From contig JABAKD010000023.1 of the NCBI GenBank assembly GCA_012845835.1, forward strand, positions 17,848,751-17,912,750: a stretch of DNA of 64,000 bases. The letters run 5' to 3'. This stretch comes from Undaria pinnatifida. Its lineage: Eukaryota > Sar > Phaeophyceae > Laminariales > Alariaceae. Positions 1 to 64,000 of this stretch are shown piece by piece. The translations under genes and the position numbers were made by a program. Under the pieces are notes generated by a model that was not told the DNA's origin, made no database searches, and saw only the letters and a program-made list of their open reading frames with translations. Positions within the stretch are counted from its first letter, which is position 1, and each line of letters opens with the position of its first letter.

Positions 1-72
1 ACAATTTATCTGTCTCCATAGCTTCTTCACGCGTCGTTCGTATCCCCCCCCCCTTCACTGCTCCTAGGCACC
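1..72 (+). other. 5' leader of family N element
   Basis: This stretch matches, in reverse complement, the sequence just outside the ATG of the second gag copy (about 41,375-41,450), including a run of C residues. It is therefore untranslated leader of the element. The LTR itself must lie before the window. Confidence 0.6.
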
Positions 73-3024
73 ATGTCCACCAGCGACGATGGGGGCTACT
101 CGGGCAGGCTGCGGTCCTCCGCGCGCCCCATCCAGGAGGCCCAGGGAGAAGGACGGGAACGCTCGAGGTCCCGCGAATCGAGACGAGGTGGACGCGCCGA
201 AAACCTGGACGACGATAGTGACTCCAACACCAGTCAACAACACGGCACACCGTCCGACCACCCCGACTCGCCGGTCGACGAGGCGGAAAAACTCCTACCG
301 GGCGCGGAGACATCACGACGACAAATATCCCCAGCCTCGAGGGAGCATCTCCAGCTGTCCTCAGAGCACCACCGTCGACATCAGACCTCTCCGCGCTCGA
401 CAGAGCGCCTTCCCCAGAGCTACGGAGACCAGCGCTCCCATGCTGGCCCCTCAGACTCAGAGTCTGAAATTTCTCGGGCCCAAAGAGCTCTCGACGAAGC
501 CAACGCGACCCTGCTTCGACGAGAGGAACGCAAACGGTTAGACGACGAACGTCGACGCCGTGATGATCACGCCATCGACCAGGCGAGAGCCGCTGCTCGT
601 GAGGCATCCCGCGCGGTCGAGAGGGCACGCCAAGCCGTTGCCCTCTCAGCTACATCGACTCCGGCGAGAGCTGCTCCTTCCTTGGCGCGCCCGCTGAGTG
701 TTGCCTCCCAAGATACACGACCCGGGGACGACGTTTTCATGTCTGGCAGCGTCCAATACATGGCTACCACGCCGAGGGTCGAGTTCTCGGCGCATCTGGC
801 GGAGGCGGTGATAGCAGCGGCCAAGGCCCTTCTAACTTCAGAGCGACGGTCGTCGTTCAAGGCGGAAGACCTCTCGGTCGGAACAGTCTGGGCTCGCCGG
901 GACAACTCGTCTGCCTTCGGGCAGATGAGGCGAGCACCTACCCTCGCTTTGGTCAAAGCCTTAAGATTGGCCCACGACGACGCCCCTGACCCAGTCCTGT
1001 GGCCGACTCCAAAGGAAGCGCTGGAAGGAAGGCGCTCCACCAAACAGCGGCGCGGTGGCAGCCGTGATCGGGGGGACCGCAACCGTGGAGGTGACAACTC
1101 CGGGGGTGGTGGCGGCCAGAGTGGGGGAAACGGGGAAAACGGTGGGAGTGGTGGCCACCACAACCGTCGCGGTGGTGGCAACGGTGGTGGAAGCGCGGGA
1201 GGAGCGTCGGGTACTGGTGGTGGCCCACAGCGCCGCCAAGGGAGCAACCAGGCCCGAACCAACCGGGGCGGCGGTCGCAGCTCGGGAGGGGGCACCGGAG
1301 GACGGCGAAACAGCACACGAGGGCCCTCAGCGTGGGACGGGTCGTCAACGTCCTCCCGCTCGTCTTCGAGCTCCACCACGGACCACGGCGAGGTGACCGT
1401 GGTAGCTGGCAGGAGGCAAGTAACTCCTTCCCTGGTGGATATTGCCTCGTCCGCCGACCGGCTGAGCAAACTTACTGTGTCGGGTGACCACACCAAGCCT
1501 GTTTCTTCGGATTTGGCTCGCGAGCGTACCGCCGAACTTGCTACCGCCGCGGCTCTAGCTAAATCCACGCTCGATGACTCGGTTAGGCGCGCCTATGTTA
1601 AGCTCTCCCACAAGGACGTATCACGCATTTCTGTGCTACCGTTCCCCGCCTCTTTGAACAAGTCTGACGGCACCCAGCAACTCACACGTTCGGTTCGGTC
1701 TGCCATGACTGACATACTCATGCGCTGTGACGACCGTTGCCAAGAGGGTGTACGTGCCCCCACGTGGGTTCCCGGTTGGATCCACCCCCTCCGCCTGGCA
1801 TTCAACCGTGCCATAACACCTGACAGGCCCACGACCGCTCGCATGACCACCTTGATCGACGATTTGTTTGGACAGGTGTCAAGAGCGTTGGACGGAGGAG
1901 CATCTGGGCCCGAGGCTTTCACCCTCCTGCTACGCCTGCTCGTGACGCACTTTGACCGGGTCGACACGGGCGAAGGCTACACTAAGTTGCACACTTTTGG
2001 AGTGTGTAACGGCACGCCTTTTTCTGATTTCAGTCGGGAGTTCCGTGTGCTAGTATCGGCAGTCACGGGGAGTGAGCGTGTTTTGTCCCCGGGGACGGAT
2101 GTCGTGCTGGAGGTGGTTAGGATGGCGGTCAACGAGCAGTTTCCGACGCTCATGCCTACGTTATACCCTGGCTCGAAGGCTACGGACCCACGGCCATACG
2201 CCTCGTTAGATGCCATGTGGAAAGCGTTCAGTGACTTGGCGCATAATAAGACACCTGCCGTCAACGGCGAAAAACATTTTCCTCTACCTGTTTCTTCGAC
2301 GGGATCGCGGTCATCCGCCCCGTCGGGGCCCCGGCCCGCCATTCATGGGCGCGGCCAGGGCCGAGTGCTGTCCCAGTCGCCTTCTTGGCAGACGGGTTCG
2401 AGCAATAATCCGATTGTCATGCCGATTGTTGCTTCCACCGACCCCTGGCTCGACAAAATGTCCAACTGCTGGCCCCTAGAAGAACAACACTATGCAGAAG
2501 TTTTTGCTGTTAGTGCCTCGTTGAAGACCGACGACCCTCCCCTCTGGAGCGGCCTCCTCACGCCCTCTGCCCGCGCCGCGGCTCTCCGAGAAAACAGGGG
2601 TCATTGCCTAAACTGTCACGAAGACACTCATTCCTTACGCAACTGTAGGCATCCCTTTATCAACGCCAGTGGCTGTCTAAACCCTGAACTTGGCCAACTT
2701 GGCGATGATGACGTTTTCCGACGGTGGCAAGCACGTATGGTTAGCTACCGCCGCGACGGACGCTCTTCTCGCTCGCAAACGTACAACAAAAATCGCCGAA
2801 ATCGTTCAAACCAATCACGAGGGTACCCACGGGATCAGGGACAGACAAACAGCCACAGCGGTAACAACAACAGCACATACACGCCTGGCCAACAAGGTGC
2901 TGTCCCGCCCTCGCCACCCTCCTCGGCTTCCGTGTCTGCTCCGGGGAAACGTTTCGGGGCAACCCACAATCCGAGCGGAAACCCCAACGCGCGCCAACCA
3001 GGTTCCTTTCGCACTGGCAACTGA
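73..3024 (+). CDS. gag: Gag-like nucleocapsid protein of LTR retroelement family N
   Basis: The 983-residue frame starts at a real ATG. In order it shows an Arg/Ser-rich basic start, a charged coiled-coil-like stretch (about 130-200), a Gly/Arg/Asn-rich RGG-type RNA-binding region (about 320-440), a globular part that resembles a capsid (about 450-800), and one canonical CCHC zinc knuckle, C845-x2-C848-x4-H853-x4-C858, before a basic tail. A zinc knuckle after a capsid-like part is the hallmark of retroelement Gag, which coats the RNA genome in the cytoplasm. A broken second copy lies in reverse orientation at about 39.06-41.38 kb and aligns over the coiled coil, capsid and knuckle, which confirms that this frame is a true protein. 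The frame is intact here, but the element is cut off about 250 bp after the stop. It is long for a Gag because of the low-complexity insert. Confidence 0.85.
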   Translation: MSTSDDGGYSGRLRSSARPIQEAQGEGRERSRSRESRRGGRAENLDDDSDSNTSQQHGTPSDHPDSPVDEAEKLLPGAETSRRQISPASREHLQLSSEHHRRHQTSPRSTERLPQSYGDQRSHAGPSDSESEISRAQRALDEANATLLRREERKRLDDERRRRDDHAIDQARAAAREASRAVERARQAVALSATSTPARAAPSLARPLSVASQDTRPGDDVFMSGSVQYMATTPRVEFSAHLAEAVIAAAKALLTSERRSSFKAEDLSVGTVWARRDNSSAFGQMRRAPTLALVKALRLAHDDAPDPVLWPTPKEALEGRRSTKQRRGGSRDRGDRNRGGDNSGGGGGQSGGNGENGGSGGHHNRRGGGNGGGSAGGASGTGGGPQRRQGSNQARTNRGGGRSSGGGTGGRRNSTRGPSAWDGSSTSSRSSSSSTTDHGEVTVVAGRRQVTPSLVDIASSADRLSKLTVSGDHTKPVSSDLARERTAELATAAALAKSTLDDSVRRAYVKLSHKDVSRISVLPFPASLNKSDGTQQLTRSVRSAMTDILMRCDDRCQEGVRAPTWVPGWIHPLRLAFNRAITPDRPTTARMTTLIDDLFGQVSRALDGGASGPEAFTLLLRLLVTHFDRVDTGEGYTKLHTFGVCNGTPFSDFSREFRVLVSAVTGSERVLSPGTDVVLEVVRMAVNEQFPTLMPTLYPGSKATDPRPYASLDAMWKAFSDLAHNKTPAVNGEKHFPLPVSSTGSRSSAPSGPRPAIHGRGQGRVLSQSPSWQTGSSNNPIVMPIVASTDPWLDKMSNCWPLEEQHYAEVFAVSASLKTDDPPLWSGLLTPSARAAALRENRGHCLNCHEDTHSLRNCRHPFINASGCLNPELGQLGDDDVFRRWQARMVSYRRDGRSSRSQTYNKNRRNRSNQSRGYPRDQGQTNSHSGNNNSTYTPGQQGAVPPSPPSSASVSAPGKRFGATHNPSGNPNARQPGSFRTGN

Positions 3025-3277
3025 CAGGGCGACGGCGGTACGGCACACCCGACCCGTACGCCGACGGCACTGTCGGGGACACTTCCTTTGATTTCACAAG
3101 ATGCTCGTGTGCCTGTCGTTCGCCTTACACGTGGCGCGGCACAAATTACTTCTGTCAAGAGCCCAAGGGCTCCTACGTCGCCTGATGACTTTCACGGCGC
3201 AGTGCCGGCGGTGGGGACCAGGGCTCCCAGTATGCCCCCCCCCAGCCAGGTTACATTTTCTACGAAGGGGGTGCGCG
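3025..3277 (+). pseudogene. Start of the post-gag region of family N, truncated
   Basis: Translated downstream of the gag stop, this segment contains a phrase (VKSPRAP, then an Asp/His-rich stretch) also found on the minus strand at about 38.85-38.91 kb, downstream of the second gag copy. It is the beginning of the next coding part of the same family. It ends abruptly where a TRIM LTR fragment begins, so nothing of protease or polymerase is left. Confidence 0.55.
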
Positions 3278-23504: not shown

Positions 23505-23541
23505 GGCTGAGGTGAACTCGAGAAAGGCTCAATCCAAAAGA

Positions 23542-23558
23542 CTGCCGTCTGAACGCCA
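23542..23558 (-). other. Primer-binding site of the gypsy element
   Basis: On the minus strand, 2 nt after the LTR end, TGGCGTTCAGACGGCAG begins with TGG, so it would pair with a tRNA 3' end finishing CCA. Position and first bases fit; the tRNA is not identified. Confidence 0.65.
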
Positions 23559-23560
23559 AT

Positions 23561-23993: not shown

Positions 23994-24023
23994 TTTATTT
24001 GTAAAAATAAAATAGATATCAAT

Positions 24024-34757: not shown

Positions 34758-35390
34758 GGTGATGCCGCGCGCCTCGAGATTCGTCTACGTTACGTTGAAT
34801 TCCCCGAGGAAACGCACTGGCGATGTGAACTTGCAAGCACCAAGAGCCTCGTACGGCTCCCGTTGAAGTCGTGTAGCGCGTCGGGGGAAGAGGGAGTTCA
34901 ATCGGTCCCGGGTCGTCGGTTGTATGTAGTCGACCCTTACCCGCCAGCTCCTGGATGTCTGAGAGGGAGGGACGCTTGTGCAAGAGGTAGCACGCCAAAA
35001 GGTCGGGCGGCAGGACCGATTGCCGGCCGATAGAAACGTAACGCATCATGGCGTGGCACGTCGGCTCAGCGTGCTGCTCTCGCTTCCAATCGCCATGTGA
35101 ATAACGCGCGACGGAATCAGCGAAACGCAATTCAGCAGCGTTGCGAAGGGCGTCCGCCCTTGTATATGCGGTCGGCGTGCCACCAGGAGAAGGCGTGAGC
35201 CGTAAGAGAGGAGTTCCCATATAGGCTCTGCGTGGTCGCGGTCGGACGGCAGTGGCACCGTGCGGACCGGCGAGTCGACAAGAGCAGGGGTCGCGGCGGC
35301 GACGGGGTCGGCTGCGGCCGTGGAACTCGCGACGGGGATGTACTTCGTCCGCAAGATGGCCGAGGAGCCCCGCCGGGCCCGAATCCATAA
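34758..35390 (-). pseudogene. Pre-integrase segment and polyprotein tail, joined by a deletion
   Basis: The part 35,390-34,925 encodes AYMGTPLLRLTPSPG...RYVSIG...LLHKRPSLSDIQEL, which in copy B directly precedes integrase. The part 34,920-34,758 matches the far 3' end of copy B (60,260-60,420; DDPGPI-LPLPP-RYTTSTG). Integrase and chromodomain between them are missing. Confidence 0.65.
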
Positions 35391-35798
35391 TCTACAGCGG
35401 GGTGCATTACCCGTTGTTATCGCTGTTCGTCGGCGCGTCGTCGACGACGGAGGGGCTGGAGTGCCAAGCATGGCGGAGACGGACACAGTCGAACCGGTGG
35501 TCGCGGCGGGGGCCGTCTCCTGTAAAGAACTCCGGGATAGATAAGTCGGCTGTGCGATGGGCGTCGCTGCAGCCAGGGCTTCTGCGGAGTCCGTGCCGCC
35601 CTCGATGGGTATGGCAAAAACCGAAGCAAAAACAGTGTCGGCCGCAGGTGAAATCGACCCGCGGCCGGTACAGCCTTCGGTAGTGGCGACGGAGGCAGAA
35701 ACACGAGCGACGAATCTCCCCGGGGAAACAGAAAGGCCGTCAATCCTTATACGTGGCTCGTGTGTGCGAAAATCGTGAAACGCGGTAGAGGTGAGAGG

Positions 35799-35945
35799 GA
35801 GCCCACCCAAGGCAGCATGTTCAGTGCGGGGCACGAGCCCACCCAAGACAGTGCTTTCGGTGTGGGGCACGAGCCCACCCAAGACAGTGATTTTGGCGAG
35901 GGGCGCGAGTCCACCCGAACCGACTCCTGGGATCGGCGAGGGGGG
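35799..35945. repeat. 36-bp tandem repeat (four units), copy A
   Basis: Units start GAGCCCACCCAAG at 35,799, 35,835 and 35,871 and GAGTCCACCC at 35,907. On the minus strand each could encode 12 residues (ESTVLGGLVPHT type). Copy B has five units. Confidence 0.85.
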
Positions 35946-36039
35946 AGCGCGCAGCCCGCGGGTCCGTAGGAGGTAGATACCGCTATCTCCAACGGGGTTG
36001 GGGCTTGTCAACCCCACGAGATTGATTTTTTTTTTTCAA

Positions 36040-36480
36040 GCCACTGCGGTCGTACTCCATAGCAGGCTCTGGAAAACGGGCCGGAAAAATCGGCGATGCC
36101 CTTGTCGCTGCCTTTGCGGTACTCGAGTGTGCAATCGAACGCGGTGACGAACTCAAGCTACCGCTGGACTCGTGCATTGAGGGTCCCCACTTTGCCAATG
36201 CTCCCCTATGTATTGTGGCCGGAGGATATGTGGAACTTTGTTCCCCTCAGTATCCTCGGAGGCGTTTGGGAACCCAAGCAATGCTGCAGGTCCCCAAATC
36301 TAGAGGAGTCCAGTGCCTCTCCGAGTCGAGCGTTGCTCGACTGATATACGCGATTTTCATAGTGAACAAAACGTCGTCCAGCGTCACGGTACCCTCGACG
36401 AAACAGGGGCAGTGTTCTGACATCGCAAGGTCAGGGCCGACGCTAGAAGCTATCTCCACAACTTCACGGCTTTTCATTGG
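36040..36480 (-). pseudogene. Protease-like region of family N, degenerate
   Basis: FVEGTVTLDDV-FTMK-AYISRATLDSE is shared with copy B (63.68-63.80 kb). Phrases such as GTV-LD-V followed by YISRATLD recall the strands around a retropepsin active site, but the DTG motif itself is not readable in either copy, so the call is tentative. The frame shifts several times. Confidence 0.35.
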
Positions 36481-36639
36481 CCCACGCGCCCGAGAAATAG
36501 ATCGGAAACGCCGAAGGGGAAGCTTTGCGAGCGCTGGCCGCTCTGAACGGTCCGGTTGCGGCGCGGACGAGATTTCTTGGTTCTTGCACTCGCAGTGCAG
36601 GTGCGGAACCGACTAGGGGAGGCCGGGTGCGCCGACCCG

Positions 36640-37202
36640 GTCTCATTGACGCAAATAGCTGCGCGAACGGCAGAAAGTGCCTCACCGAGCAAGTTTTTCC
36701 TCTCCCCTGGCATGGGTTGTTGGCCCTGGGACCATCCGCCCGGAGGCCAATGCCCCACACTGGGTTCAGAGGGCTGGATTCAGCCAGAAGCTTGTCGTCA
36801 GAGCTCAAAAGGTGATTTTTTTATGGCTGGATTCTGCGTGAATTTGGCGTAGGTGCCAGGCGACACGGCGTTTTGCTTCTCCCTGTCCCCAACAGCGGAG
36901 TCAAAGTTGCGCACGCCTCGACCGATGCGTTTGCGTATGCTTGGACGAGGCGACGACATAATGAGCCCCACTGCTCGATGGTCTTGCAAAAACTTGGTCT
37001 TTTCGGCCATCATGTACTGCTCCGCGCAAGAATATGGTACGTCGTCCACGGCAAACGACGAAGGGGACCACGGTGGAAAATAGGATGGGGGCTGCCAAAA
37101 TAACACCACTTTGGCTGTGGAGTATTCGAGAGAAGGGACAAAATCCGTGTTGAAATTTGGGCTGCAATGTCCCCGTCCGGGAACACCAGGCCTCGGGAGC
37201 AC
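36640..37202 (-). pseudogene. NADAR (YbiA-like, DUF1768) domain inside an LTR retroelement
   Basis: The NADAR fold is read in three overlapping frames on the minus strand: SPSSFAVDDVPYSCAEQYMM, then KRIGRGVRNFD and YAKFTQNPA (37,121-36,801), then LLAESSPLNPVWGIGLRAD (36,808-36,700), then NLLGEALSAVR (about 36,695-36,640). This is the full order of family blocks at the usual length of about 160 residues. Members act on ADP-ribose derivatives, e.g. removing ADP-ribose from guanine bases. The two frame changes fall in an A7 and an A5 run, so they may be recent slips or assembly errors. The upstream 77-residue repeats lie in the same frame with one stop between. It sits between gag and the protease-like part. 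Confidence 0.82.
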
Positions 37203-37277
37203 GACGCGAATCCGAACCCGTGGTATCTCGCCTCGGGTCTTTCTTCGTTCGTTGGCGGAAAAGCGCGAGAATCCGCT

Positions 37278-37961
37278 CTAACTGCGCCCGAAAAATGGCA
37301 AAAACCGACGGTGCCAACCCGTCGGTAGCCTCGTTCGGCATTTGTGGGTCTGCAATGTCCCCTTTTGGGAACACCAGTCCTCGGCTACTTGGGCGTGTAA
37401 TGTCCCCTTGCGGGAGCACCAGGCCTCGGGAGCAACATGCGAGTCCGAACCTGGGGTTTCTCGCCTCGGGTCCTCCTCACTCGCTGGCGGAAACTCGTAA
37501 GAAGCCGCCCTCATTGCACCCGAAAACGAGTCCACCACCGACGGTGCCAACCCGTCGGTAGCCTCGTTGGGCATTTGGGTCTGCAATGTCCCCTTTTGGG
37601 AACACCAGTCCTCGGCTACTTGGGCGTGTAATGTCCCCTTGCGGGAGCACCAGGCCTCGGGAGCAACATGCGAGTCCGAACCTGGGGTTTCTCGCCTCGG
37701 GTCCTCCTCACTCGCTGGCGGAAACTCGTAAGAAGCCGCCCTCATTGCACCCGAAAACGAGTCCACCACCGACGGTGCCAACCCGTCGGTAGCCTCGTTG
37801 GGCATTTGGGTCTGCAATGTCCCCGTCTGGGAACACCAGTCCTCGGCTCTTTGGGCCTGTAGTGTCCCCCTCAGGAACACCAGGCCTCGGGAGCACGACG
37901 CGAGTCCGAACCCACGGTTTCTCGCGTCGTGGCCTCTTCGCTCTTTGGCGAATAATCGCAA
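37278..37961 (-). pseudogene. 77-residue tandem repeats N-terminal to NADAR
   Basis: The frame of 227 residues is built from a 231-bp unit (starts at 37,785, 37,554 and 37,321 on the plus strand); each encodes EAWCSRKGTL, EDWCSQKGTL, MPNEATDGLAPSV and a Pro/Glu-rich end. Since 231 is divisible by three, the array stays in frame. It is in the same frame as the NADAR start. Function unknown; the paired W-C-x-x-GTL motifs are notable. Confidence 0.6.
37321..37960. repeat. 231-bp tandem repeat
   Basis: Two almost identical units (from 37,554 and 37,785) and more diverged partial ones on either side. Confidence 0.85.
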
Positions 37962-38049
37962 GAAAACTGCTCTAACTGCACCCGAAGGGGCAGGGGCTCT
38001 GAGCTGTTTCTGCTTGACGAGAGGCGCGATTCTTCCGTAAAATTACGGG

Positions 38050-39054
38050 AACAGCGTCCAGCTGATCAGGCTGGAGGCCGTGGAGTCACCACTGGCCCGT
38101 CGCGCAGTGTCGGATCTTCTTCCTGTGCCACTGGGGCAGACGTAGCCTGAAACACGTGGGTTAGCGTGTCAAAAGACGAAGCAGGGTCCGTAAACCCTGT
38201 GGGCGTCTTCTGGAGCGGGGCTCGGGCAAGGCAATATTATTTTTACCCGAGGAGGCTCTCTTCCGTTATGTCTCTTGGAGAAGGGAGACGAGGTAGCTAA
38301 TCTTGTCGACTCCTCCTTGATGGAAAAAAGGACAGAGCGTCCGCTGTCATCGTGAGCAAACACCGGATCGAGCCTCGCAAAAGATCTCGGTGTTGTATTG
38401 TTGGCCTTCCCACACCTCAAATCGACCGCCACCTCGTGGTCAGAAAAAGTGTTTCGAGGGTCGACCGTCCCACACCTCAAACCGACCGCCACCGCCTGGT
38501 CAGGGAGAGGGGGGGATGAACACATACGCGTAAAAAGGCGACGCGCCGTCACCGCAGCTATATTGTTGCGCGGCGCGTGCCTGGGGGGGGAGCGCGCAAA
38601 GCGCAGGCTCCCGTGCCATGGTTGATGGGGGCGGCGTTTGGAGCGCGTACCCCCATTGCTGAGTTTATGCCGCGGCTGAGGGGTACGGCGCCGGAAGCGC
38701 GGTTCCCGTTGCCGAACTCAGACCATGACCGAGGGGAACGTCGCTGAAAGCGTGCGCTCTCGCCGTCGAAAAAGAAAGAAAGAAAAGAAAAAAATACCTG
38801 GCTGGAGGAAACCACGCTTGAAGCGCTAGTTCCCGCCGCCGGTACTACGCCGTGAGAATCGTCTGCAGACGGCGTAGGAGCCCGTGGGCTCTTGACAGAG
38901 GCCATCTGTGCTGCGTTACTGGACAGGCTAGCAACAGAACACGAGCATCTTCTGAAAACGAAATAGGTACCCCCCCGACAGTGTTGTCGACGGTGCCGTA
39001 CCGCCGTGGAGCTGTCGATTGCCGTTACGGAATGTGCCAGGTTGGCGCGCAAAT
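38050..39054 (-). pseudogene. Post-gag Ser/Pro-rich region of family N copy A
   Basis: Contains the VKSPRAP phrase found after gag in the 1-3.3 kb copy. A roughly 60-bp direct repeat (TCCCACACCTCAAA, GACCGCCACC) lies at about 38,405-38,515. I recognise no domain. Confidence 0.45.
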
Positions 39055-41376
39055 TTATTTTCGCCCGGGGTGTGGGCGGCTCCAAAGCGCATTCGAGAAG
39101 CGGGAGCGGGGGCAGAAGAGGCGGGCGAGCGCAGGATACCATGGTGATCCGACGTGTATGTGGTATCGTTGTAACAGTTTACCTGGCCCTGAGCCTGAAA
39201 GATGGCGACGATTTTTCTTGTGGTTGTTTGGGCGAAAGGATTTGTCGTCTCGGCGGTAGCAGACCATGCGTGTTTGTCAACGTCGGTGTGCGTCATCGTC
39301 GCCAAGTTGGCCTAGTTCAGGGTTCAAGCAGCCACTCGCAGTAACATAAGGATGCCTACAATGCTTGAAGGAATGGTTGTCTTCGTGGCAGTTGAGGCAA
39401 AGCCCCCGGTTTTCTCGGAGGGCATCAGCGCGAGGTGAAAGGAGGCCGCTCCAAAGGGGAGGGTCGTCTGTCTTAAACGAGGCCTTAACGGCGAAACCTT
39501 CTGCATAATGATGCTCTTCTAGTGGCCAGCAGTTCGATGTGTGGTCAAGCCAAGGGTCAGATCAATCATCGATGGGCATGACAGTTGAATGATGGCTCGA
39601 TCCCGTCTGCCACGAAAGCGACTGGGACGGCACTCGGCCCTGGCCGCGCCCATGATCAGCGGGCCGGGGCCCCGATAGGGCGCATGACCGCGCTCCCGTC
39701 GAAGAAACAGGGAGATGAAAAAATGTTTCGCCGTTGACGGCAGGTGTCTTATTAGTCACTAAAAGCCCGCCACATAGCATCCAACGAGATGTACGGCCGC
39801 AGGTTTGTTGCCTTCGAACCAGGGTACAACGCAGGCAGGAGAGCCGGAAATTGCTCATTCGCCGCCACCCGAACCACGTCCAACACCACATCCGTCCCCG
39901 GAGACAAAACACGCTCACCTTCCGTAGCGGTCGGCATGAGTACGCGAAACTCCCGACTGAAATCAGAAAAAGGCATGCCGTTACACATTCCAAAAGTATG
40001 CAACTTAGTGTAGCCCTCCTCCGTGTCAACCCCGTCGAAGTGCGTGATCAGCAGACGCAACAGGAGGGTGAAAGCCTCAGGCCCAGATGCTCCTCCTGCC
40101 ATGGCTTTTGACACTTTTTGCCTGCTACCACGACCACCTCGCTGTGGTCCGTGCTCGAGGACGAAGACGAGCGGGAGGAGGTTGACGAGCTGTCCCACGC
40201 TGAACGTCCTCTCGCGCCGTTCCTCCGCCCGAGCTGCGGCCAACTGCCCCGGTTGTTGGACCAAAGTTGCCCCCTCGGCGGCGCCCTCAGGCACACCAGC
40301 ACCCGATGCGCTGTCACCCCCGCGGCGGTGGTGGTGGTAGCCACCCCCACCATTTTTGCCGCCACCCCCACGGTTGCGGTCCCCGCGGTCGCGACTGTCG
40401 CGACATTTTCCCCGGTTTCGTTCTGCCAACTCTTCCTCCGGGGTCCGGCCAAAAGACAGGGTCGGGGTCCTCGTCGTGGGCTATCAGCAGGGCCTTGACG
40501 AGGGCAAGGGTCGGGGTGGCTCTCGTCTGCCTAGCATAGGGCGTACAATCCACGCGAGCCCAGGCCGCTTCCATTGAGGACGTCCGCTTGCCGCGACGCC
40601 GGCCTCTCTGACGGGAGGAGGGCGCAGGCCGTTTCCACCACCGCGGGTCGCCAACGCTGAGGAGAAGTCTACCCGCGGTGCAGACGCCATGCACGCGACG
40701 ATGCCCTTGAAGAAGGCGTCGTTCCCGGGTCGTTGTCGCTGGGATGCGACACCCTGCGGGCGCGACGAAGGCAAGGGGGCCGCGGTAGCTCCCGCCGCAG
40801 CCGACGCAACTGATTGAGCGAGGGCTTGTTGCGCCCTCTTCGCAACCAGGGACGACTCCCGCGCAGCGATCTTCGCCTGCTCGATATCTTCGTCAAACCG
40901 ACGTCGGCGTGCTATCGTCTGGTTGGCGTCGTCGAGCGCCCGCTGGGCCTGCGCCGCCGCGTATGCCAAGTCCAAGGGGGCGGCATGGGCGCCCCGGTCC
41001 CGGGAGCTCTGGGGGTGGCGCTCTGTCGAGCGCGGAGAGCCCAGGTGGCGGCGGTGGTGCCCTGTCGAGCGCGGGGGGGCAGCTGGTGGCGCTCCCCCGG
41101 GGCTGGCGAGAGCTGGCGTCGAGACGCCCCCGAGTCCGGTGGGGGTTGGTCCGTCTTCTCAGCGCGAACCAGCGAAGCGACCCGCTTGGTTGGTGGGAAC
41201 GGGTGGAGGTATGGTGCTCCGTCTTCTGTCTCGTCACCGGAACCCGCCTCCGGTGGTTCCCCCCGTCTCGAGTCGCGGCATCTCGAGCGAGCTCTCCCTG
41301 TCTCGTGGGCATCCAGGTAGGGGTGCGTGGAAGACCTCAGCCAGCCCCGAGTAGCCCCCATTGTCACTGGTGGACA
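39055..41376 (-). pseudogene. gag: Gag pseudogene of family N copy A
   Basis: Starts with ATG at 41,376 and can be followed in several frames: basic start, coiled coil (AQRALDDANQTIARRRR), Gly-rich part, capsid-like part (GGASGPEAFTLLLRLL), and an intact CCHC knuckle (CLNCHEDNHSFKHC) around 39,370-39,410. Compared with the intact copy at 73-3024 it has many frameshifts and lacks about 0.46 kb between the Gly-rich part and the capsid-like part (junction near 40,115). Confidence 0.8.
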
Positions 41377-41619
41377 TGGTGCCTAGGTGTAGTAAAGGGG
41401 GGGGGGGGGATAGGAACGACGCGTGAAGAAGCTATGGAGACAGATAAATTGTTGTGGTGTTCCTGCTCCAAGTAGCGGTATATCTGTGTTTCAGCAAACA
41501 GCAACAATATGGGCCTTGACTCCGTCCAGCCTCAGTGATGGTAGCAGCCACGTCAACTAGCCGTATAAGAGGAGTACAGCAGTAACAAGGTACCAATCAT
41601 CATAACCGCAACATAAGAG

Positions 41620-43620
41620 CAGCGCCCAGTCTGACCGTAGGGTATATGGGTAACGCCCGCACGAACCGGAGTACAAGGAGCCAAAACTGGGCAGCACTGA
41701 CCCTAACCGCAGTGCAGGGGGTGCAACACAGTAAGGGTACGTCTGCAGCCATCGAACTTGAACAGGCATCATTCAACCTAGGCGGGGGGAGGTAGCACAG
41801 GAAAGTGTCGCCCAAAACGCCCACGCTCATCGGACCAAAACAGGCAGCATTTACCCTAGGTGTAGTGTAGGGGTTATCACAATAAAGGTTCGCCTAACAC
41901 GCCGACGCTCATCGCACCAAAACAGGCAGCATTTACCCTAGGTGTATTGTAGGGGGGGAGCACAGTGAAGGGTCGCCCAACACGCTGACACTCATTGCAC
42001 CAAAACGGGCAGCATTTAACCTAGGTGTAGTGTGAGGGTGGAAGCACAGTGTAAGATCGCCCAACACGCTGACACTCATCGCACCAAAACGGGCAGCATT
42101 TGCCCTAGGTGTAGTGTAGGGGGGGAGCACAGTGAAAGGTCACCCAACACGCTGACACTCGTCGCACCAAAACAGGCAGCATTTACCCTAGGTGTAGTGT
42201 GAGGGTGGAAGCACAGTGTAAGATCGCCCAACACGCTGACACTCATCGCACCAAAACGGGCAGCATTTGCCCTAGGTGTAGTGTAGGGGGGGAGCACAGT
42301 GAAGGGTCACCCACACGCTGACACTCATTGCACCAAAACAGGCACCATTTACCCTAGGTATAGTGTAGGGGGGGAGCACAGTGAAAGGTCACCCAACACA
42401 CTGACACTCGTCGCACCAAAACAGGCAGCATTTAACCTAGGTGTAATCTAGGGGTGGAAGCACAGTGTAAGATCGCCCAACACGCTGACACTCATCGCAC
42501 AAAAACGGGCAGCATTTGCCCTAGGTGTAGTGTAGGGGGAGAGCACAGTGAAAGGTCACCCACACGCTGACACTCGTCGCACCAAAACAGGAAGCATTTA
42601 CCCTAGGTGTAGTGTGAGGGTGGAAGCACAGTGTAAGATCGCCCAACACGCTGACACTCATCGCACCCAAACGGGCAGCATTTACCCTGGGTGTAGTGTA
42701 GGGGGGGAGCACAGTGAAAGGTCACCCAACACGCTGACACTCGTCGCACCAAAATAGGCAGCATTTACCCTAGGTGTAGTGTAGGGGTGGAAGCACAGTG
42801 TAAGATCGCCCAACACGTTGACACTCATCGCAACAAAACGGGCAGCTTTTGCCTTAGGTGTAGTGTAGGGGGGGAGCACAGTGAAAGGTCACGCACACGC
42901 TGACACTCATTGCACCAAAACAGGCAGCATTTACCCTAGGTGTAGTGTGAGGGTGGAAGCACAGTGTAAGATCGCCCAACACGCTGACACTCATCGCACC
43001 AAAACGGGCAGCATTTACCCTAGCTGTATTGTAGGGGGGAGCACAGTGAAAGGTCACCCAACACGCTGACACTCGTCGCGCCAAAACGGGCAGCATTTAC
43101 CCTAGGTGTAGTGTAGGGGTGGAAGCACAGTGCAAGATCGCCCAACACGCTGACACTCATCGCACCAAAACGGGCAGCATTTACCCTAGGTGTATTGTAG
43201 GGGGGGAGCTCAGTGAAAGGTCACCCAACACGCTGACACTCGTCGCACCAAAACAGGCAGCATTTACCCTAGGTGTAGTGTAGGGGGGGAGCACAGTGTA
43301 AGATCGCACAACACGCTGACATTCATCGCACCAAAACGGGCAGCATTTACCCTAGGTGTAGTGTAGGGGGGGGGCACAGTGAAAGGTCACCCAACACGCT
43401 GACACTCGTCGCACCAAAACAGGCAGCATTTACCCTAGGTGCAGTGTAGGGGGGGAGCACAGTGAAGGATCGCGCAGCCAACCGTATAAAAATGGGCAGC
43501 ATCTGCCCCCACAGCAGTAGTGTGGTGGGGGGTAGGACAGTATACGTTCGCGTACCAACCGTATATTAAAAAAAAACGGGCAGTATAACCCCCCCAAACA
43601 AAGTAGTTTCCCCCGACCGC
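41620..43620. repeat. 83-bp satellite array
   Basis: About 19 well-preserved units between 41,830 and 43,480, anchored by GGCAGCATTTACCCTAGGTG every 83 bp, with degenerate units on both sides. Two variants alternate for much of the array (AAGATCGCCC with CATCGC and ACGGG; AAAGGTCACCC with CGTCGC and ACAGG), giving a roughly 166-bp higher-order unit. No coding. Confidence 0.95.
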
Positions 43621-44775
43621 ACTGAAGGGGGACGGTCGCGCCTGCAGTAGTGCTGATTGCTGCAGTATCACTGCTGTGTTCACAGGTAACGGTAATTTCA
43701 ACCGCACCAAGATGGGTAGTGTAGTACCAACACCAGCTGTAGAAAAATGTGCACGCCCACAGTCGAATAGAAAGGCTGTTTGCCCCCAAAGGTACCGCAT
43801 TAAACGGGCTGTTCTCCACTGCACTAGTAAAAACTGTGAAGCGCAGTATCTCCGCGAACTGTGTAGTAAGCGCTCTGTAACGGGCAGTAGCTGTCCGAAC
43901 ATGTGCAGAGAAAAAGAAAAAAAAAAAATTACAGCGTAGGCCCTAGCAATATCGTGAAGGGCAGCACATGTACCGGCAGGAAGACGGCGTAACGCCCGGA
44001 CAGCTGAAAAAAAAAATCCGTACCCACTCCCACCGATAAAGGGACAGTTACGTTGACAGCAGTGCGGAGTGCCGCACGGTCACAGCTGTGCATACACAGA
44101 AAGTGGTATTATAGTCCCCGCGTACCCATGAATGGGAGAATATAGGGCATCGCACACACCAACAGCCTTGCCCATAAAAGCCAGCACAGAGTTTCAGCGT
44201 TCACTAGGTTCAAGTTCTAGTCACGGAGGGGCCAGGACGAAAAAAAAACCTCTCGAATCGAACTTGCAAGGAGCACTCGCATAGCAGTGGGGGGTGTCAG
44301 AGCTGCGGTGCTGTAACTGTGGACGCTGGGGCAGTGAAGGGTCGAGCTATGTGGTGTATGAGCAGGAGCAAAGTAGGCGGCTTGGCTGCTGTACCATGAC
44401 TTCTACAGCAGAGAATCCGGCGGTATATGGCAGGCATTGACAGCGAGCCCATTGTGCTGCACTGTAGTTGGCACCTCTGCAAAAATGATGGTGGTTGAAG
44501 CTACGCGACGGACAGCAGTAGCGGAACGCTGTTGATCGAGAAAGATCGGAGAGGGGTCCGAGGTGCCAAATTCGTAGCTTGTACTAATTTCGGCAGAAAG
44601 GGGGCACAAGGGCAGCTGCTTGTTCGACGCACAAGAATGATCGACGTACGTACTGAAACCCATACGATAACGCGTGTACTGGAAAATTTGCTAAACGAAA
44701 AAGCCCAAACATTCCACGAGCACCGCCTGTTTCTTCCCAGGTAGATCACAAAGGAAGGAGCCCCGACATGAGCTC
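43621..44775. other. Unassigned DNA with satellite-like remnants
   Basis: Phrases resembling the satellite (CACCAAGATGGGTAG, GGGCAG) fade out to about 44,150. I see no gene. Confidence 0.4.
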
Positions 44776-45536
44776 CTAGAGCACGGTGCCCGTAGTCCAA
44801 GGGGGTCCCGCGAAGGACGGTCTGGCACCGACAGCAAGGATGTGCTGGGCGATGGGATCTCTCAGCGAGCGAAGTCCCCTTCGAATGTCATTCGAAGGGT
44901 TGATTCCAGTATGCTTGTCCGTGGCATGCGTGCATATGCCTCCGAGCCCCAAAGCGCGAAAAAAAAGTACGAGTTGATGGCCGATCTTGGGGCTTGTGCT
45001 GGCAACTCGCGGATATGTGCTGTGCAACATGCTGGCAGAGCGCGGAGCAAACAAGTCTGATGGGTGGGGCTCGGGCAGTTCCACTGCGGAGTGGTCTATG
45101 ACCAGCTGGCGGTGAACTGATGCGGCCAAAGGCCGGGACGAGGGGTGTGCTCCGAAGAGCAGTGTCGTCCGCCCGTACTCGGAAAGTGTCCTCTGTGTGG
45201 TGCGTGCCCAGCAACCAACAGGAGGGACCAAAATTCGAGACGAGGAGTGTGCTCCGCAGAGCAGAGTCGTCCGCACGTACTTGGAAGGTGTCGTCCGTGT
45301 GGTACGTGCGCGGCGACCAACAGGAGGGGCCCCTGCCATCTCACTGCTGTTGTGGTCGCCGTTGTAGGAGGAAGGGCGCTCCCTCCATTGAGAAGCCACC
45401 CGAGAAGGAACAGGGGTTGTGGGCTCGATGGAAAGCAAAAGCAAAATCGCTACGAGAAAAAAATCGGAGAAACCGGAAGAACGCTGCCACAATAGCACAT
45501 CAAGCTCGACGACGCCACTTGTTAAATTAATCCTGC
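44776..45536 (-). other. Internal region of LTR-C element, truncated
   Basis: Lies downstream of the LTR-C 5' LTR and its primer site. It holds a direct repeat of about 102 bp (45,140-45,240 and 45,242-45,340; GTGTGCTCCG-AGAGCAG, CAACCAACAGGAGGG). The long minus-strand frame here starts inside the LTR and shows no retroelement domain, so I do not call it a gene. No 3' LTR is seen. Confidence 0.45.
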
Positions 45537-45549
45537 CGACGACGCCACT
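45508..45549 (-). other. LTR-C primer-binding site, duplicated
   Basis: Directly after the LTR, on the minus strand, AG then TGGCGTCGTCG. The LTR end and this site are repeated once more (CGACGACGCCACTTGTTAAATTA at about 45,508 and 45,537). The same TGGCGTCGTCG follows the TRIM LTRs. Confidence 0.65.
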
Positions 45550-45818
45550 TGTTAAATTAAAGGTGGGGGACACAGAGTGCCCCCTGCAGGTCTGCCAATT
45601 GAGCAGGTCATCGGAGAGTACTCACTTTCGTTCCTTCGTAGAGATGTAGCTTTATTCGTTTCCACCAGAGCCCGAGATAGCTTCTGAGATCGGAGGCGCG
45701 TGCCTCCGATCTAATTCCTAACTTCCCCGAATATAAACCGCCAACCTTATCATACGAAACCCATTCAAATAATCTCAAATTCGGATACCTACAGGCCTTT
45801 CGAGGCCGTATCTTAACA
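45550..45818 (-). repeat. LTR-C, 5' LTR with TATA box and polyadenylation signal
   Basis: 269 bp from TGTTAAGATACGG to TTTAATTTAACA on the minus strand, i.e. TG...CA ends. It has a TATA-like TTTATATTCGG, a later AATAAAGC, and a 24-bp perfect palindrome (10-bp arms around GCGT, near 45,700). The same LTR is at 59,155-59,424. Confidence 0.8.
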
Positions 45819-59154: not shown

Positions 59155-59424
59155 TGTTAAATTACAGGTGGGGGACACAGAGTGCCCCCTGCAGATCTGC
59201 CAATTGAGTAGGCCCTCGGAAAGTACTCACTTTTCTTTATTTCGTAGAGATGTAGCTTTGTTCGTTTCCACCAGAGCCCGGGATAGCTTCTGAGATTGGA
59301 GGCACGTGCCTCCGATCTATTTCCTAACTTTTCCGAATATAAAACGCCAACCTTATCATACGAAACCCATCCAAATGATCTCAAATTCCGATAATTACAG
59401 GCCTTTTGAGGCCGTATCTTAACA
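59155..59424 (-). repeat. LTR-C, lone LTR
   Basis: 270 bp, closely matching 45,550-45,818, with the same TATA-like and AATAAAG-like positions and the same ends. No primer site or polypurine tract flanks it and I see no target duplication, so it is a solo or truncated LTR. Confidence 0.8.
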
Positions 59425-60249
59425 CTAGCCCACCCTGATGAGTCACATATGCAGAAATATGGGAGATTCGGGGAAACTCCGGTTCTACGAACTAGACCAT
59501 GAGTCGAAGATATGGCTCCTCAAAACCCACTCCCACACCTCTAACCGTCTGGCTATGGAGCCAGGAACACGCGAAGAAAAGCAGTTGAAAGAAACGTAGA
59601 CCCTACAACAAGGCAAAAGTCACCCGTCAAAAACCTGCCGCGTGCCGCCGGTGTGGCGGGCAGAAAGGCTCTACGGCAAACCAACCACAGAAAAGGTACC
59701 ATGGCGAGGCGAGCCCTCGTGGATATGGAGAGGAACACAGGCGCTAACACAAAGGAGAAGTCATGCGAAAAACCTCCCGCGGGCCATCGGCAAGGCGGGG
59801 GGTTAGACGAGGAAACGACAAATACCCGGGATGGCAGGTGGCAACAACTACAGCCCCGCTAGGGGGGGAAGTGTTTAGAAGAATAACAAAGTAGAACAAA
59901 TACAACACACAAAAGATAAAAGATAACACACAGACCCGTACATAGCCCTGTACCACGTTATGCGCGAACAGAGTACCCTGGTCGCCCCTCGGCTCTGGGC
60001 TGAGGAGGGCGTCGGCAGGGCGAAATTGAACAATGACGAAAAGGCGACAGCCCTGCGCCTCAGATGGCGGCGTTTTGCCCGAACCCTGACCCGGCACTGA
60101 GCAGGGGGTTCGGCAGGACAGAAAGAAAAAATAATGGAAGAACCACCCCAAAACCGATGAAGATCCTCAGAACACTACGAACAACCCAAAGACAAAGACG
60201 CAAAACTCATAACCCCAAAAAATGAAGAACTAGCGAGGAGCGTTGGCGG
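59425..60249. other. Unassigned; possible polypurine tract and LTR start
   Basis: A direct repeat (AAAACCT-CCGCG...GGCGGG) lies at 59,631 and 59,768. At 59,862-59,871 AGGGGGGGAAG is followed by TGTTTAGAAG, which looks like a polypurine tract and LTR start on the plus strand, but I could not find a partner LTR. Confidence 0.3.
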
Positions 60250-60699
60250 CTTGGAAGTCAACTAGCCACGGCCGCGCCTCGAGATTCGTCTACGCTACGT
60301 TGGATTCCCCGAGCAAACGTACTGGCGATGTGAACTTGCAAGCACCAAGAGCCTCGTGCGGCTCCCGTCGAAGTCGTGTAGCGCGCAGGGGGAAGAGGGA
60401 GTTTAATCGGTCCCGGGTCGTCCAGAAAGCGGACCAGGTATACCTTGTCCTCGGTAGTGCTCGCGCTGATTTTTCCAAGACACCAAAACCCATCGTCTCC
60501 CATGTTCCAAACATGGGCTCCCTTAGGGAGTACTGTGTCGTGGTAGCGACGGAGCCAATTGTCGCGGGGAACACAGGCGTAGCCCGGCGCTAAGAAACGT
60601 TCCCCGTTGTTGCGGGAGAGCTCGCGCTCTGCCGCCCCGATCCGCATTCGGCGGTAGAGGCGGTTGGGTTGGCGGTGCTGGTCCGGGGTTCCGGCTCAA

Positions 60700-60840
60700 T
60701 AACGCAAGATGTGGGAGGGGGAGAGTCCATTTCTCGCTCCAACGAAGGTTCGGAGAGTCCCGCCCAATGCGTCTTGTATAGCACCGCGATAAAGTCACCT
60801 CGCCCCCGTACCGACTGATGACCAGTGATCTGCTCCACCT
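60700..60840 (-). pseudogene. Chromodomain at the end of the family N polyprotein
   Basis: One frame reads VEQITGHQSVRGRGDFIAVL, then a Tyr, THWAGLSEPS and EREMD, the pattern of a chromodomain (V-x-x-I, repeated polar turn, W-x-G-L, E at the end). It lies in another frame than the integrase C-terminus. Confidence 0.6.
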
Positions 60841-61541
60841 CCAGCCGTTGTACGGGAGTCGAAACGTCGTCTTGAGTGACGTGGTGCGGCGGGGACTATT
60901 TGGAAATTTGTTGAGCACGTACTGTGTCAGCCCCGCCGGTAGGTATTTGGGCATGTCCCCGCTGTCGTGGGGGTTGGCACAAGGTATGCAGAGCTCCATG
61001 GCCACACGCCGACGAGCGTCCAAACCGGGCAGGTCGGAAGGGAGATCCAAATAGAGGAGGTTGCTCCCGACCGGCGAGTCGTTCGGGGTCTCGGCGGCGG
61101 AGCAGGGACCGACGGCCAGGACCTTGTACGGGCCCGTCCAGTTAAGCGCGAGTTTGGCCTTGAGTACCTTGGCGTCGGTGTTCGCCTTCACACCCTGGCG
61201 GATGGTAGAGGCAAAATTGTATACCCATGCCCAACCACCCACAGTGAAGTTAGGTGCTGGACGCAGCGCGTCCGCGAGGGCGGAGTTTCTGCGGTTAACA
61301 CGGGAAACGGTGAAGGCGTCGTGTGCGTGGACAATGTCGTTCGCGCGCTTTTGCCGGTCGGCGGCCAAGTGGCAATAGGCCAGGTGGTCACGAGGCAGAC
61401 TCTGGTGTCCCACGACACCAGTGCGGTCGAACCCGTCAGGGGGAGCCGTGGGAGACTGCCCATGTGGACCTCGTTGGGCGCCAGACCCGTCGCCGCGCTG
61501 ACGGAATTGTTGTGAGCGAATTCTACGTGGAGCAGATGCAA
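60840..61541 (-). pseudogene. Integrase C-terminal part with GPY module
   Basis: FAHNNSVSAATGLAPNEVHMG is the typical end of a gypsy integrase core. A frameshift near 61,440 leads to LNWTGPYKVLAVGPC, the GPY/F module, then SNLLYLDLP. It is the expected order after the catalytic core. Confidence 0.75.
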
Positions 61542-61544
61542 TTC

Positions 61545-62048
61545 TCAATCGCCTTGTCGCTTGGTGACGACCATAGCCAGCATTTGGGCCATAGTGTCGT
61601 TGACCCGCTCAACGCCCCCGTTACAGTTGGGATGATAGGAGGTTGTAGCAAGCTTGTACAAGCCCAACAGCTGATATACAGCTTGTGAAAGCTTGAAGCA
61701 GAACTGCAGTCCGTTATCTGAGAGTATGGTGCGCGGGCACCCCCACAAGGGGATGTATTGGTTCACCAGGATATTGGCTGTACCCTCCGCGGTGAACTCA
61801 GCGGCAGTGACGGGGAACATGTCTGCCCGACGACTGAAGTGATCGGTGAACAGCAGGATGTAGGTGTTGCCTCGTGGTGTGACCGGCAGGGGCTCGAAGT
61901 AGTCAACACTGACGGCAATACCTGGACCTTTCGGCAGAGACATTGCGATGATGGGCCAGCGGACAGTCAACCATAGGGTTTTCCGCGCTTGGCACTTCAA
62001 GCGGTGGCGAAGCCACCACCGGATGCACACATTCATTCCAATTCGTCA
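61545..62048 (-). pseudogene. Integrase catalytic core of family N copy B
   Basis: SVDYFEPL, TILSDNGLQF and GGVERVND provide the D, D and E, with exactly 35 residues between the second Asp and the Glu, as in Ty3/gypsy integrases. All three catalytic residues are kept. It is bounded by two UGA codons (62,046-62,048 and 61,545-61,547), both where relatives usually have Trp. Confidence 0.85.
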
Positions 62049-62561
62049 GTAAAATCGCTCCAGCATGCGCAACGTGCGCGTGGTGCCAAGATGACAAGGG
62101 GCCGTCGAGCGATAAGCTTGCATGATCCAAGGGCGCATGAGCAGGGAAACGTAGATGCGAACTGGCTCGTCGTTTAGCAAGCAAGCAGCTCGCCTCACAG
62201 AGTTGGGTTTGTCAGACCTTGTTGGTGGCAGTGTCGGGTTACGGACGAGTAGGACGATGTCGTCGTCGGTTGTATGTAGACGACCTTTACCCACCAGCTC
62301 CTTGAGGTCTGAGAGGGATGGACGCTTGTGCGAGAGGTAGCACGCCAAAATGTCGGGCGGCAGGAGGCCGGTAGAAACGTAACGCATCTGGGCGTGGCAC
62401 GTCGGCTCAGCGTGCTGCTCTCGCTTCCAATCGTCATGTGAATAACGCGCGACGGAATCAGCGAACAGTAATTCAGCAGCGTTGCCGCGGGTGCCCGACC
62501 TTGTATATGCAGGCAGCGTGTCGCCAGGAGAAGGCGTGAGCCGTAAGAGAGGAGTTCCCAT
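62049..62561 (-). pseudogene. Pre-integrase and zinc-binding region
   Basis: AYMGTPLLRLTPSPG, a WKREQHAEPT stretch, LACYLSHKRPSLSDL and then APCHLGTTRTLRMLERFY. The last is the HHCC region, where the first His appears to be replaced and one late Cys is Arg. It continues through the UGA into the core. Confidence 0.7.
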
Positions 62562-63140
62562 ATAGGCTGTGCGTTGTGGCGGTCGGACGGTAGTGGCACC
62601 GTGCGGACCGGAGAGTCGGCAAGAGCAGGAGTTACGGCGCGGGGGGAGCCGGCCGCGACCGTGGGACTCGCGGCGGGGTTGTACCTCGTCTGGAAGATGG
62701 CCGAGGGGCCCCGCCGGGCCCGAATCGATAATCTACAGCGGGGGTGCATTACCCGTTGCTGTCGCTGTTCCTCGGCGCGTCGTCGACGACGGAGGGGCTG
62801 GAGCGCCAAGCAAGGCGGAGACGGACACAGTGGAACCGGTGGTCGGGGCGGGGGCCGTCTCCTGTGTAGAACTCCGGGATAAAGGAGCCGGCTGTGCGAT
62901 GGGCGTCGCTGCAGCCAGGGCTTTTGCGGTGCCCGTGCCGCCCTCGATGGGTATGGCAAAAACCGAAGCGAAAACGGTGTCAGCGGCAGGCGAAATCGAC
63001 CCGCGGCCGGTACAGCCTTCGGTAGTGGCGACCGAGGCAGAAACACGATCGACGAATCTCCCCGGGGAAGCAGAAACGCCGTCAATCCTTATACGTGGTT
63101 CATGTGTGCGAAAATCGTGAAACGCGGTAGAGGTGAGAGG

Positions 63141-63310
63141 GAGCCCACCCAAGGCAGCATGTTCAGTGCGGGGCACGAGCCCACCCAAGACAGTGCTTTC
63201 GGCGAGGGGTTCGAGTCCACCCAAAGCTGTGGTTTCGGTGTGGGGCACGAGCCCACCCAAGACAGTGCTTTCGGCGAGGGCGCGAGTCCACCCAAACCGA
63301 CACCTGGGAT
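63141..63310. repeat. 36-bp tandem repeat (five units), copy B
   Basis: Units start at 63,141, 63,177, 63,213, 63,249 and 63,284. Copy A has four. Confidence 0.85.
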
Positions 63311-63429
63311 CGGCGAAGAGGGAGCGTGCAGCCCGCGGGTCCGTCGGAGGTAGATACCGCTTTCTCCAACGGGGTTGGGGCTTGTCAACGCCAAGGGGTT
63401 GAAGTTTGTCAAGCCGCTGCGGTCGTAAT

Positions 63430-63960
63430 CCGTAGCAGGCTCTGGACAACGGGTCGGAAAAATCGGCGATGCCGTTGGCGCTGTCTTTGCGGTACTCGAG
63501 TGTGCAAACGCGGTGACGAACTCAAGCTACCGCTGGACTCATGCATTGAGGGTCCCCACTTTGCCAGTGCTCTCCTGTGCCTTGTGGCCGGAGGGTATGC
63601 GAAGCTTTGTTCTCTATGGTACCCTCGGAGGCGTTTGGGAGCCCAAACAATGCTGCCGGTCCCCAAATCTAGAGGAGTCCAGTGCCTCTCCGAGTCGAGC
63701 GTTGCTCGACTGATGTACGCGGTTTTCATAGTGAACGAAACGTCGTCCAGCGTCACAGTACCCTCAACGAAACAGGGGCCGTGTTCTGGCAGCGTAAAGT
63801 CAGGGGCAATGCCAGAAGCTATTTTCAAACCTCCACGGATTTTAATTGACAACGCGCCCGAGAAATCGGTCGGAAACGCCGAAAGGGAAGTTTTGCGAGC
63901 GCTAGCCGCTGTTAACGGCCCGGTTGCGGCGCGGACGAGATTTCTTGGTTCTTGCATTCG
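63430..63960 (-). pseudogene. Protease-like region, copy B
   Basis: FVEGTVTLDDVSFTMKTAYI and RATLDSERHWTPLDLG match copy A. Active site not readable; tentative. The NADAR domain would lie just beyond the window end, since 63,960-64,000 matches the DNA right after the NADAR region of copy A. Confidence 0.35.
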
Positions 63961-64000
63961 CAGTGCAGGTGCGGAACCGACTAGGGGAGGCCGGGTGCGC

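What the first reader, a model, noticed from the sequence alone, without database searches (positions are those of the whole stretch)
36640..37202. A NADAR (YbiA-like) domain as cargo of an LTR retroelement
The domain is read over its whole length between gag and a protease-like region. From established knowledge, NADAR proteins act on ADP-ribose derivatives and some remove ADP-ribose from guanine in nucleic acid, an antidote role. Inference: the element may use it to undo host ADP-ribosylation of its RNA or cDNA, or may have caught a host gene. I know of no described retroelement function for it.
Basis: partly seen in the sequence, partly recalled or inferred. Interest (0 to 1): 0.88.

Follow-up and report, generated by a model that had tools for sequence, protein, structure and literature searches.

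The report
NADAR enzyme domain in algal retrotransposon
A family of jumping genes in what is probably a brown alga carries a bacterial-type enzyme domain that may strip ADP-ribose from nucleic acid; the copy seen here is broken, copies with this gene open are common in the same genome, and the same kind of fusion was already reported in another brown alga in 2025.

Summary
The NADAR domain is real. On the minus strand at about 36654-37100 it is spread over two frames (Pfam E 9.5e-19 and 5.6e-4), inside a decayed Gypsy-like element (copy A, 5' LTR 45550-45818 to about 34912). The "protease-like" neighbour is RNase H: protease and reverse transcriptase are deleted, with the same breakpoint (within 2 bp) in copies A and B and three other loci. 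A and B thus belong to one amplified deletion derivative, where an active-site Trp is replaced in 8 of 8 copies examined.

The genome gave 150 scored NADAR matches, 22 of 150 in open frames of 2000 codons or more. In better-kept copies the order is Gag, in-frame TGA, NADAR, protease (weak), RT, RNase H, integrase. NADAR shows purifying selection: dN/dS 0.24 against 0.91 in the adjacent spacer for the window copy versus L009. Catalytic residues are mostly kept; the model matches ADP-ribose-bound NADAR (TM 0.87).

NADAR at the N-terminal region of Gypsy Pol is already in print for Ectocarpus (PMC12477816). This is a further member of a known kind, with new detail. The function is untested.

The parts
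34768..45818 (-). Copy A: decayed NADAR-carrying Gypsy-like element of the deletion-derivative subfamily. The last 150 bp (34768-34917) match the end of Pol at 98%, far closer than the rest of the coding part, and may be a separate piece; no 3' LTR was seen
   Evidence: blastn to L009, L017, L021
45550..45818 (-). 5' LTR of copy A (begins TGTTAAGATACGG)
   Evidence: 96.7% identical to the 267-bp LTR of the L009 insertion; contiguous with the leader, 43401-45818 at 95.9% to L021
41786..43473 (.). Tandem array (unit about 83 bp) in the 5' leader; similar sequence in L009 and L021
39015..41380 (-). gag remnant of copy A (approximate ends); the gag/pol junction reads CGA where the 15 matched copies read TGA
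   Evidence: L009 1-4211 to 42562-38468, 75.7%; junction alignment
37157..37986 (.). 231-bp tandem array, an expansion of the stretch just upstream of NADAR
   Evidence: TRF; matches L009 4636-4852
36654..37100 (-). NADAR domain, whole length but split over two frames; Trp89-equivalent replaced by Gly
   Evidence: Pfam; tblastn; active-site table
36354..36360 (.). Deletion junction: L009 5630 meets 7718 (protease and RT lost), within 2 bp the same in copy B, L056, L057, L058
34912..36354 (-).
   Evidence: L009 7718-9085, 71%; weak PF17917 E 0.011
59155..64000 (-). Copy B, same subfamily, runs off the window; 3' LTR about 59155-59424; its NADAR lies just outside (L016 414-818)
   Evidence: integrase rve E 1.7e-6, below the curated cut-off
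1..3277 (+). Copy C: gag of family 1 (98.5-98.8% identical to L009), TGA at 3022-3024, then the match ends before NADAR

Best explanation
The window holds a dead copy of a Ty3/Gypsy-like LTR retrotransposon family that encodes a YbiA-type NADAR domain in the first part of Pol. In better-kept copies Gag ends in a TGA and Pol follows in the same frame, so NADAR would be made only as part of a Gag-Pol product when ribosomes pass the stop (inferred). Most likely the domain is an active N-glycosidase carried into the virus-like particle with RT and integrase. There it would remove ADP-ribose (or a related riboside adduct) from guanine bases of the element's RNA or cDNA, keeping them copyable. Shown here: presence, order, recurrence, in-frame TGA, conserved active site, predicted fold, purifying selection, and decay in the derivative that lost protease and RT. 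Inferred: packaging, catalysis, substrate and benefit.
For: Pfam NADAR over 163 of 163 positions, E 2.4e-49, at Pol residues 319-469 of L012, followed by weak aspartic protease, RT, RNase H, H2C2 and rve. TGA in 15 of 15 distinct copies whose junction matched the pattern; first Met of the Pol frame at codon 70 in L009 and 79 in L012. dN/dS 0.15 (0.07-0.26) between L009 and L046. NADAR 0.23-0.32 against upstream spacer 0.72-0.91. E43, K50 and E125 equivalents present in 32, 32 and 34 of 34 copies; their roles are from PMC11543638 section 12. AlphaFold model pLDDT 94.6 matches 8bau with ADP-ribose, TM 0.87. PMC11125620 (passages) reports hydrolysis of guanosine ADP-ribose by all NADAR/YbiA proteins it tested in that experiment.
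Against: No biochemical or transposition data. Physiological roles of NADARs outside DarT operons are unclear (PMC11125620), and YbiA also acts on riboflavin intermediates (PMC11543638). Only one partial PARP match was found in this genome (positions 10-62 of 199), and the DarT and KptA searches did not complete, so no host enzyme that modifies nucleic acid was identified. RNA folding after the TGA is not consistent between families (z -0.73 and -0.66 for 100 nt; -2.01 and 0.06 for 136 nt), so read-through is not independently supported. Copy A, too diverged for the TGA pattern, reads CGA there. The gag frame of L009 is itself split, and for 20 of the 34 copies only the domain was fetched, so their element context is inferred.
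Confidence: 0.42

Rival explanations
1. The NADAR acts on small molecules (NAD- or ADP-ribose-derived signals, or riboflavin intermediates as E. coli YbiA does) and helps the element by blunting a host signal, not by cleaning its own nucleic acid.
For: YbiA family type (Glu at the E125 position). PMC9503650 (passages) posits that viral NADARs might prefer soluble ADP-ribose derivatives.
Against: A domain built into Gag-Pol and so placed beside RT and integrase fits a particle-bound substrate better (inference). [quoted passage not shown]
Confidence: 0.25
2. The domain is a binding or structural part (RNA or protein adaptor) and catalysis is not what is selected.
For: NADAR domains of nematode SNA-3 act in an RNA-processing complex, and its NADAR1 lacks the residues critical in YbiA (PMC9303266 passages).
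Against: Catalytic residues kept in nearly all of 34 main-family copies, and a Trp lost in 8 of 8 of the deletion derivative. In SNA-3 itself, mutating these residues in NADAR2 and NADAR3 impaired function.
Confidence: 0.15
3. Neutral passenger: host gene debris caught by chance and carried along.
For: The NADARs of copies A and B in or beside the window are decayed; within the deletion derivative dN/dS is near 1 (14 of 15 pairwise intervals include 1).
Against: dN/dS 0.15-0.34 in the estimable comparisons between lineages, low NADAR against high spacer values, and 22 of 150 scored matches in open frames of at least 2000 codons.
Confidence: 0.05
4. Origin alternative: the standalone brown-algal NADAR proteins derive from the retroelement (domestication), not the reverse.
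For: Family-1 NADAR and five standalone proteins (named Ectocarpus, Scytosiphon or Pylaiella in four; P0061 unnamed) form one group, 100/97. All retroelement-type NADARs plus these proteins as one clade is not rejected (p 0.087), while without them it is (p 0.021; groups chosen after seeing the tree). In this genome no match to P0067 scored above the retroelement copies (150 of 1679 candidates scored, exon by exon, so an intron-split gene could be missed).
Against: NADAR is far more diverged between families (48%) than RT (79%), which also fits separate captures; four of the standalone proteins have an N-terminal Cys/His stretch with no clear counterpart in the element.
Confidence: 0.35

Closest known systems
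NADAR-bearing Gypsy lineage of Ectocarpus (Gypsy-12_Ec32), PMC12477816
   Same: [quoted passage not shown] bacterial hits for the NADAR (passages)
   Different: Here the chromodomain is only a weak match (E 0.081 and 0.069). In-frame TGA, the amplified protease/RT-less derivative and selection tests are added; 'readthrough' and 'stop codon' do not occur in that paper's main text. RT kinship with Gypsy-12 was not tested.
NADAR family proteins of bacteria (Nannocystis, 59-61% identity)
   Same: Whole domain; active-site residues in the one checked, P0078
   Different: Bacterial ones are standalone proteins of 171-174 residues in the two read (P0078, P0084)
Phytophthora nicotianae NADAR (8bau), a guanine-ADP-ribose hydrolase
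   Same: Fold (TM 0.87); E43, K50, E125, D130 and W133 equivalents
   Different: 29% identity; positions Y84, D86 and R93 differ in family 1 (my reading of the alignment, residue roles)
NADAR domains in polyproteins of RNA viruses (nidovirus-like and others)
   Same: NADAR inside a replication polyprotein (structure matches; PMC9503650 passages)
   Different: Those encode RNA-dependent RNA polymerases; this is a reverse-transcribing LTR element

Membership tests
NADAR superfamily (PF08719) | Match to the domain model over its length | tested here: met
   163 of 163 positions, E 2.4e-49 in L012; window copy in two frames
NADAR superfamily (PF08719) | YbiA fold | tested here: met
   AlphaFold model of the L009 domain against 8bau TM 0.87 and 2b3w TM 0.81
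YbiA subfamily | Glu in the last strand (E125 of P. nicotianae) rather than Asp or His | tested here: met
   Glu in 34 of 34 main-family copies; rule from PMC11125620 passages
DarT1-associated NADAR antitoxin (BC4488 type) | Catalytic Asp in place of that Glu, beside a DarT gene | tested here: not met
   Glu present; no DarT match among the Pfam hits of the element pieces
Ty3/Gypsy LTR retrotransposon | LTRs with TG...CA ends | tested here: met
   267-bp LTRs, identical on both sides of the L009 insertion
Ty3/Gypsy LTR retrotransposon | Order protease, RT, RNase H, integrase in Pol | tested here: met
   L012; the protease match is weak there (E 0.072) and in L009 (E 0.31)
[quoted passage not shown]
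   Pol residues 319-469 of L012
Ectocarpus NADAR-Gypsy lineage | C-terminal chromodomain | tested here: inconclusive
   PF00385 E 0.081 and 0.069, below cut-off
Ectocarpus NADAR-Gypsy lineage | RT falls in that lineage | not tested
   I did not have the Gypsy-12_Ec32 sequence

The most novel reading that the evidence does not exclude
A retroelement carries its own ADP-ribosyl-guanine eraser in the particle as a counter-defence, implying that the host ADP-ribosylates foreign RNA or cDNA. This would be a eukaryotic, transposon-borne analogue of the DarT-NADAR conflict. The standalone brown-algal NADAR proteins would be domesticated relatives or donors of the domain.
Probability: 0.25. Interest if true: 0.87.

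Novelty: new member of a known kind. Interest (0 to 1): 0.5.

Why it matters
If the domain is an active eraser selected inside Gag-Pol, it points to nucleic-acid ADP-ribosylation as a pressure on retroelements in a lineage where I know of no described defence of that sort (recall, not searched). The genome offers a natural contrast: the main families mostly keep the active site and show low dN/dS, while a derivative without protease and RT has lost an active-site Trp and most of the constraint. That makes the question directly testable.

Tried and rejected
Protease next to NADAR in the window: rejected, the stretch is RNase H and the protease/RT part is deleted.

Chance insertion of a host pseudogene: disfavoured by recurrence and selection.

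A separate high-copy NADAR family (hits with similar P0067 boundaries, about 60-213): six were fetched. Three span the deletion junction of copies A and B; the other three are short stretches 89-96% identical to one of those. So they look like the same subfamily.

Stem-loop after the TGA: no consistent support. Rfam on the 5' LTR region: no match.

Host ADP-ribosyl transferases: PARP gave one partial match; DarT (PF14487) and KptA (PF01885) did not complete. RT copies lacking NADAR: not completed.

Single-sequence structure model: poor (pLDDT 40.6) and not used.

Two dS values are infinite (L009 against L012 and L047) and were not used. L046 has lost one active-site Trp, so its use as a living lineage is approximate. 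L046 and L047 were fetched only as the domain; that they lie in Gag-Pol is assumed. In some searches eight unnamed ENA proteins were treated as retroelement-type by their place in the tree (labelled 'other').

A brown alga is supported by 150 scored EsV-1-7 motif places (PMC12477816, passage, says this domain proliferated in brown algae) and by the named non-bacterial hits.

Full report
What is there. The window is G000:C30:17848751-17912750 of a 511-Mb genome. A search for the EsV-1-7 motif gave 150 scored places, and the named non-bacterial NADAR hits in the list for family 1 are brown algae, so a brown alga is likely; the species is not established. On the minus strand at 36654-37100 lies a whole NADAR domain broken over frames.

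The element. Copy A runs from a 5' LTR at 45550-45818 through a leader with a tandem array, gag, a 231-bp tandem expansion and NADAR, then jumps to RNase H and integrase remnants, ending near 34912. It is a mosaic: LTR plus leader (43401-45818) are 95.9% identical to the L009 insertion, the coding remnants 71-84%, and a last 150 bp 98%. Against L009 the stretch from about 5630 to 7718, which holds protease and RT, is missing. Copy B (59155 to beyond 64000) and loci L056, L057 and L058 on three contigs have the same junction within 2 bp. The simplest reading is one deletion whose product was then amplified, presumably in trans. Copy B carries NADAR just past the window. Copy C (1-3277, plus strand) is family-1 gag and its match ends before NADAR.

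Better-kept copies. The 150 scored NADAR matches (of 1454 candidates) are listed as over the Pfam cut-off, and 22 of 150 lie in open frames of 2000 codons or more. In six of the seven 10-kb stretches L009-L015 (all but L015) a gag ORF is followed after one stop by Pol in the same frame; in L009, L010 and L011 that gag ORF is short (498, 277 and 414 aa against 938-1019 in L012, L013, L014), so their gag is broken upstream. The stop is TGA in 15 of 15 distinct copies whose junction matched a pattern that left the stop codon free (11 of family 1 including window copy C, 4 of family 2). The two families' Gag proteins are 38.8% identical over 443 columns. Copy A is too diverged for the pattern and reads CGA. 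In L012 the order is Gag (938 aa), TGA, Pol with NADAR (residues 319-469), a weak protease match, RT, RNase H, H2C2, rve and a weak chromodomain. The L009 insertion has identical 267-bp LTRs, so it is recent.

Selection. NG86 dN/dS between L009 and L046 is 0.15 (95% bootstrap 0.07-0.26; 32 of 500 replicates with unusable dS were dropped). Within the deletion derivative (6 copies) 14 of 15 pairwise intervals include 1. Comparing L009 with derivative copies, NADAR gives 0.23-0.32 (5 copies), the upstream spacer 0.72-0.91 (3 copies, all intervals include 1) and the downstream stretch 0.44-0.65 (3 copies, one interval below 1). For the window copy itself NADAR is 0.24 (0.12-0.39) and the spacer 0.91 (0.53-1.48). 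These are pairwise values, so they cover the path between the window copy and L009, not one branch. Between families 1 and 2 NADAR is 48% identical, while Pol before it gives no match at E 1e-3.

Active site and fold. With P. nicotianae numbering (residue roles from PMC11543638 section 12; positions mapped by me through the alignment), E43 is kept in 32 of 34 main-family copies, K50 in 32, W89 in 32, E125 in 34, D130 in 34 and W133 in 32. In the deletion derivative W89 is replaced in 8 of 8 (Gly in 7, Cys in 1). For 20 of the 34 (L030-L049) only the domain was fetched, so their element context is inferred. The alignment-based AlphaFold model of the L009 domain (pLDDT 94.6) matches 8bau at TM 0.87 and YbiA 2b3w at TM 0.81.

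Origin. The tree (61 rows) joins family-1 NADAR and L046 with five standalone proteins, four named as brown-algal (100/97). Family 2 and L047 fall elsewhere. One clade of all retroelement-type NADARs without the standalone proteins is rejected weakly (p 0.021; families 1 and 2 alone p 0.031), with them it is not (p 0.087), and family 2 with L047 is not rejected (p 0.375). The groups were chosen after seeing the tree and include eight unnamed ENA proteins. Separate captures, or one capture followed by domestication into host genes, both remain.

Literature. [quoted passage not shown] I saw no other report of this fusion in the titles and abstract starts listed for NADAR with retrotransposon (20 of 104 papers listed), with brown alga (20 of 80), NADAR domain with reverse transcriptase (6 of 6) and with Ty3 (1 of 1), and YbiA with transposable element (2 of 2).

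Verdict. The mechanism (a particle-borne N-glycosidase that removes ADP-ribose from guanine in the element's nucleic acid) is my best guess at 0.42.

Noticed in passing
window 15291-23995, minus strand: A second LTR element: LTRs 15291-15727 and 23559-23995 differ at 1 of 437 bases. Gag (21903-23528) is followed in the same frame, after a TAG, by a second ORF (20262-21902), then after a TAA by the RT-integrase ORF (17217-20261); the TAA lies near the start of RT and looks like a nonsense change of this copy.
   Followed up: partly
window 39015-39017, minus strand: In copy A the gag/pol junction reads CGA where the 15 matched copies have TGA; whether the whole derivative subfamily shares this was not checked.
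   Followed up: no
window 34768-45818: Copy A is a mosaic: LTR and leader 95.9% identical to the L009 insertion, coding remnants 71-84%, last 150 bp 98%. Recombination or gene conversion between families is possible.
   Followed up: partly
P0054, P0067, P0092, P0101 (Pylaiella, Ectocarpus, Scytosiphon): Standalone NADAR proteins with a Cys/His-rich N-terminal stretch (seen by eye; no Pfam match there in the three of these four scanned), sister to the family-1 retroelement NADAR.
   Followed up: partly
L017 2254-5620, L021 1763-4698: Tandem repeats of about 838 bp (period read by me from match coordinates) flank the L009 insertion on both sides, so this copy seems to sit in a satellite array.
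   Followed up: no
window 52289-53216 and 56539-57151: A tandemly repeated segment of about 395 bp occurs in two clusters at about 90% identity.
   Followed up: no
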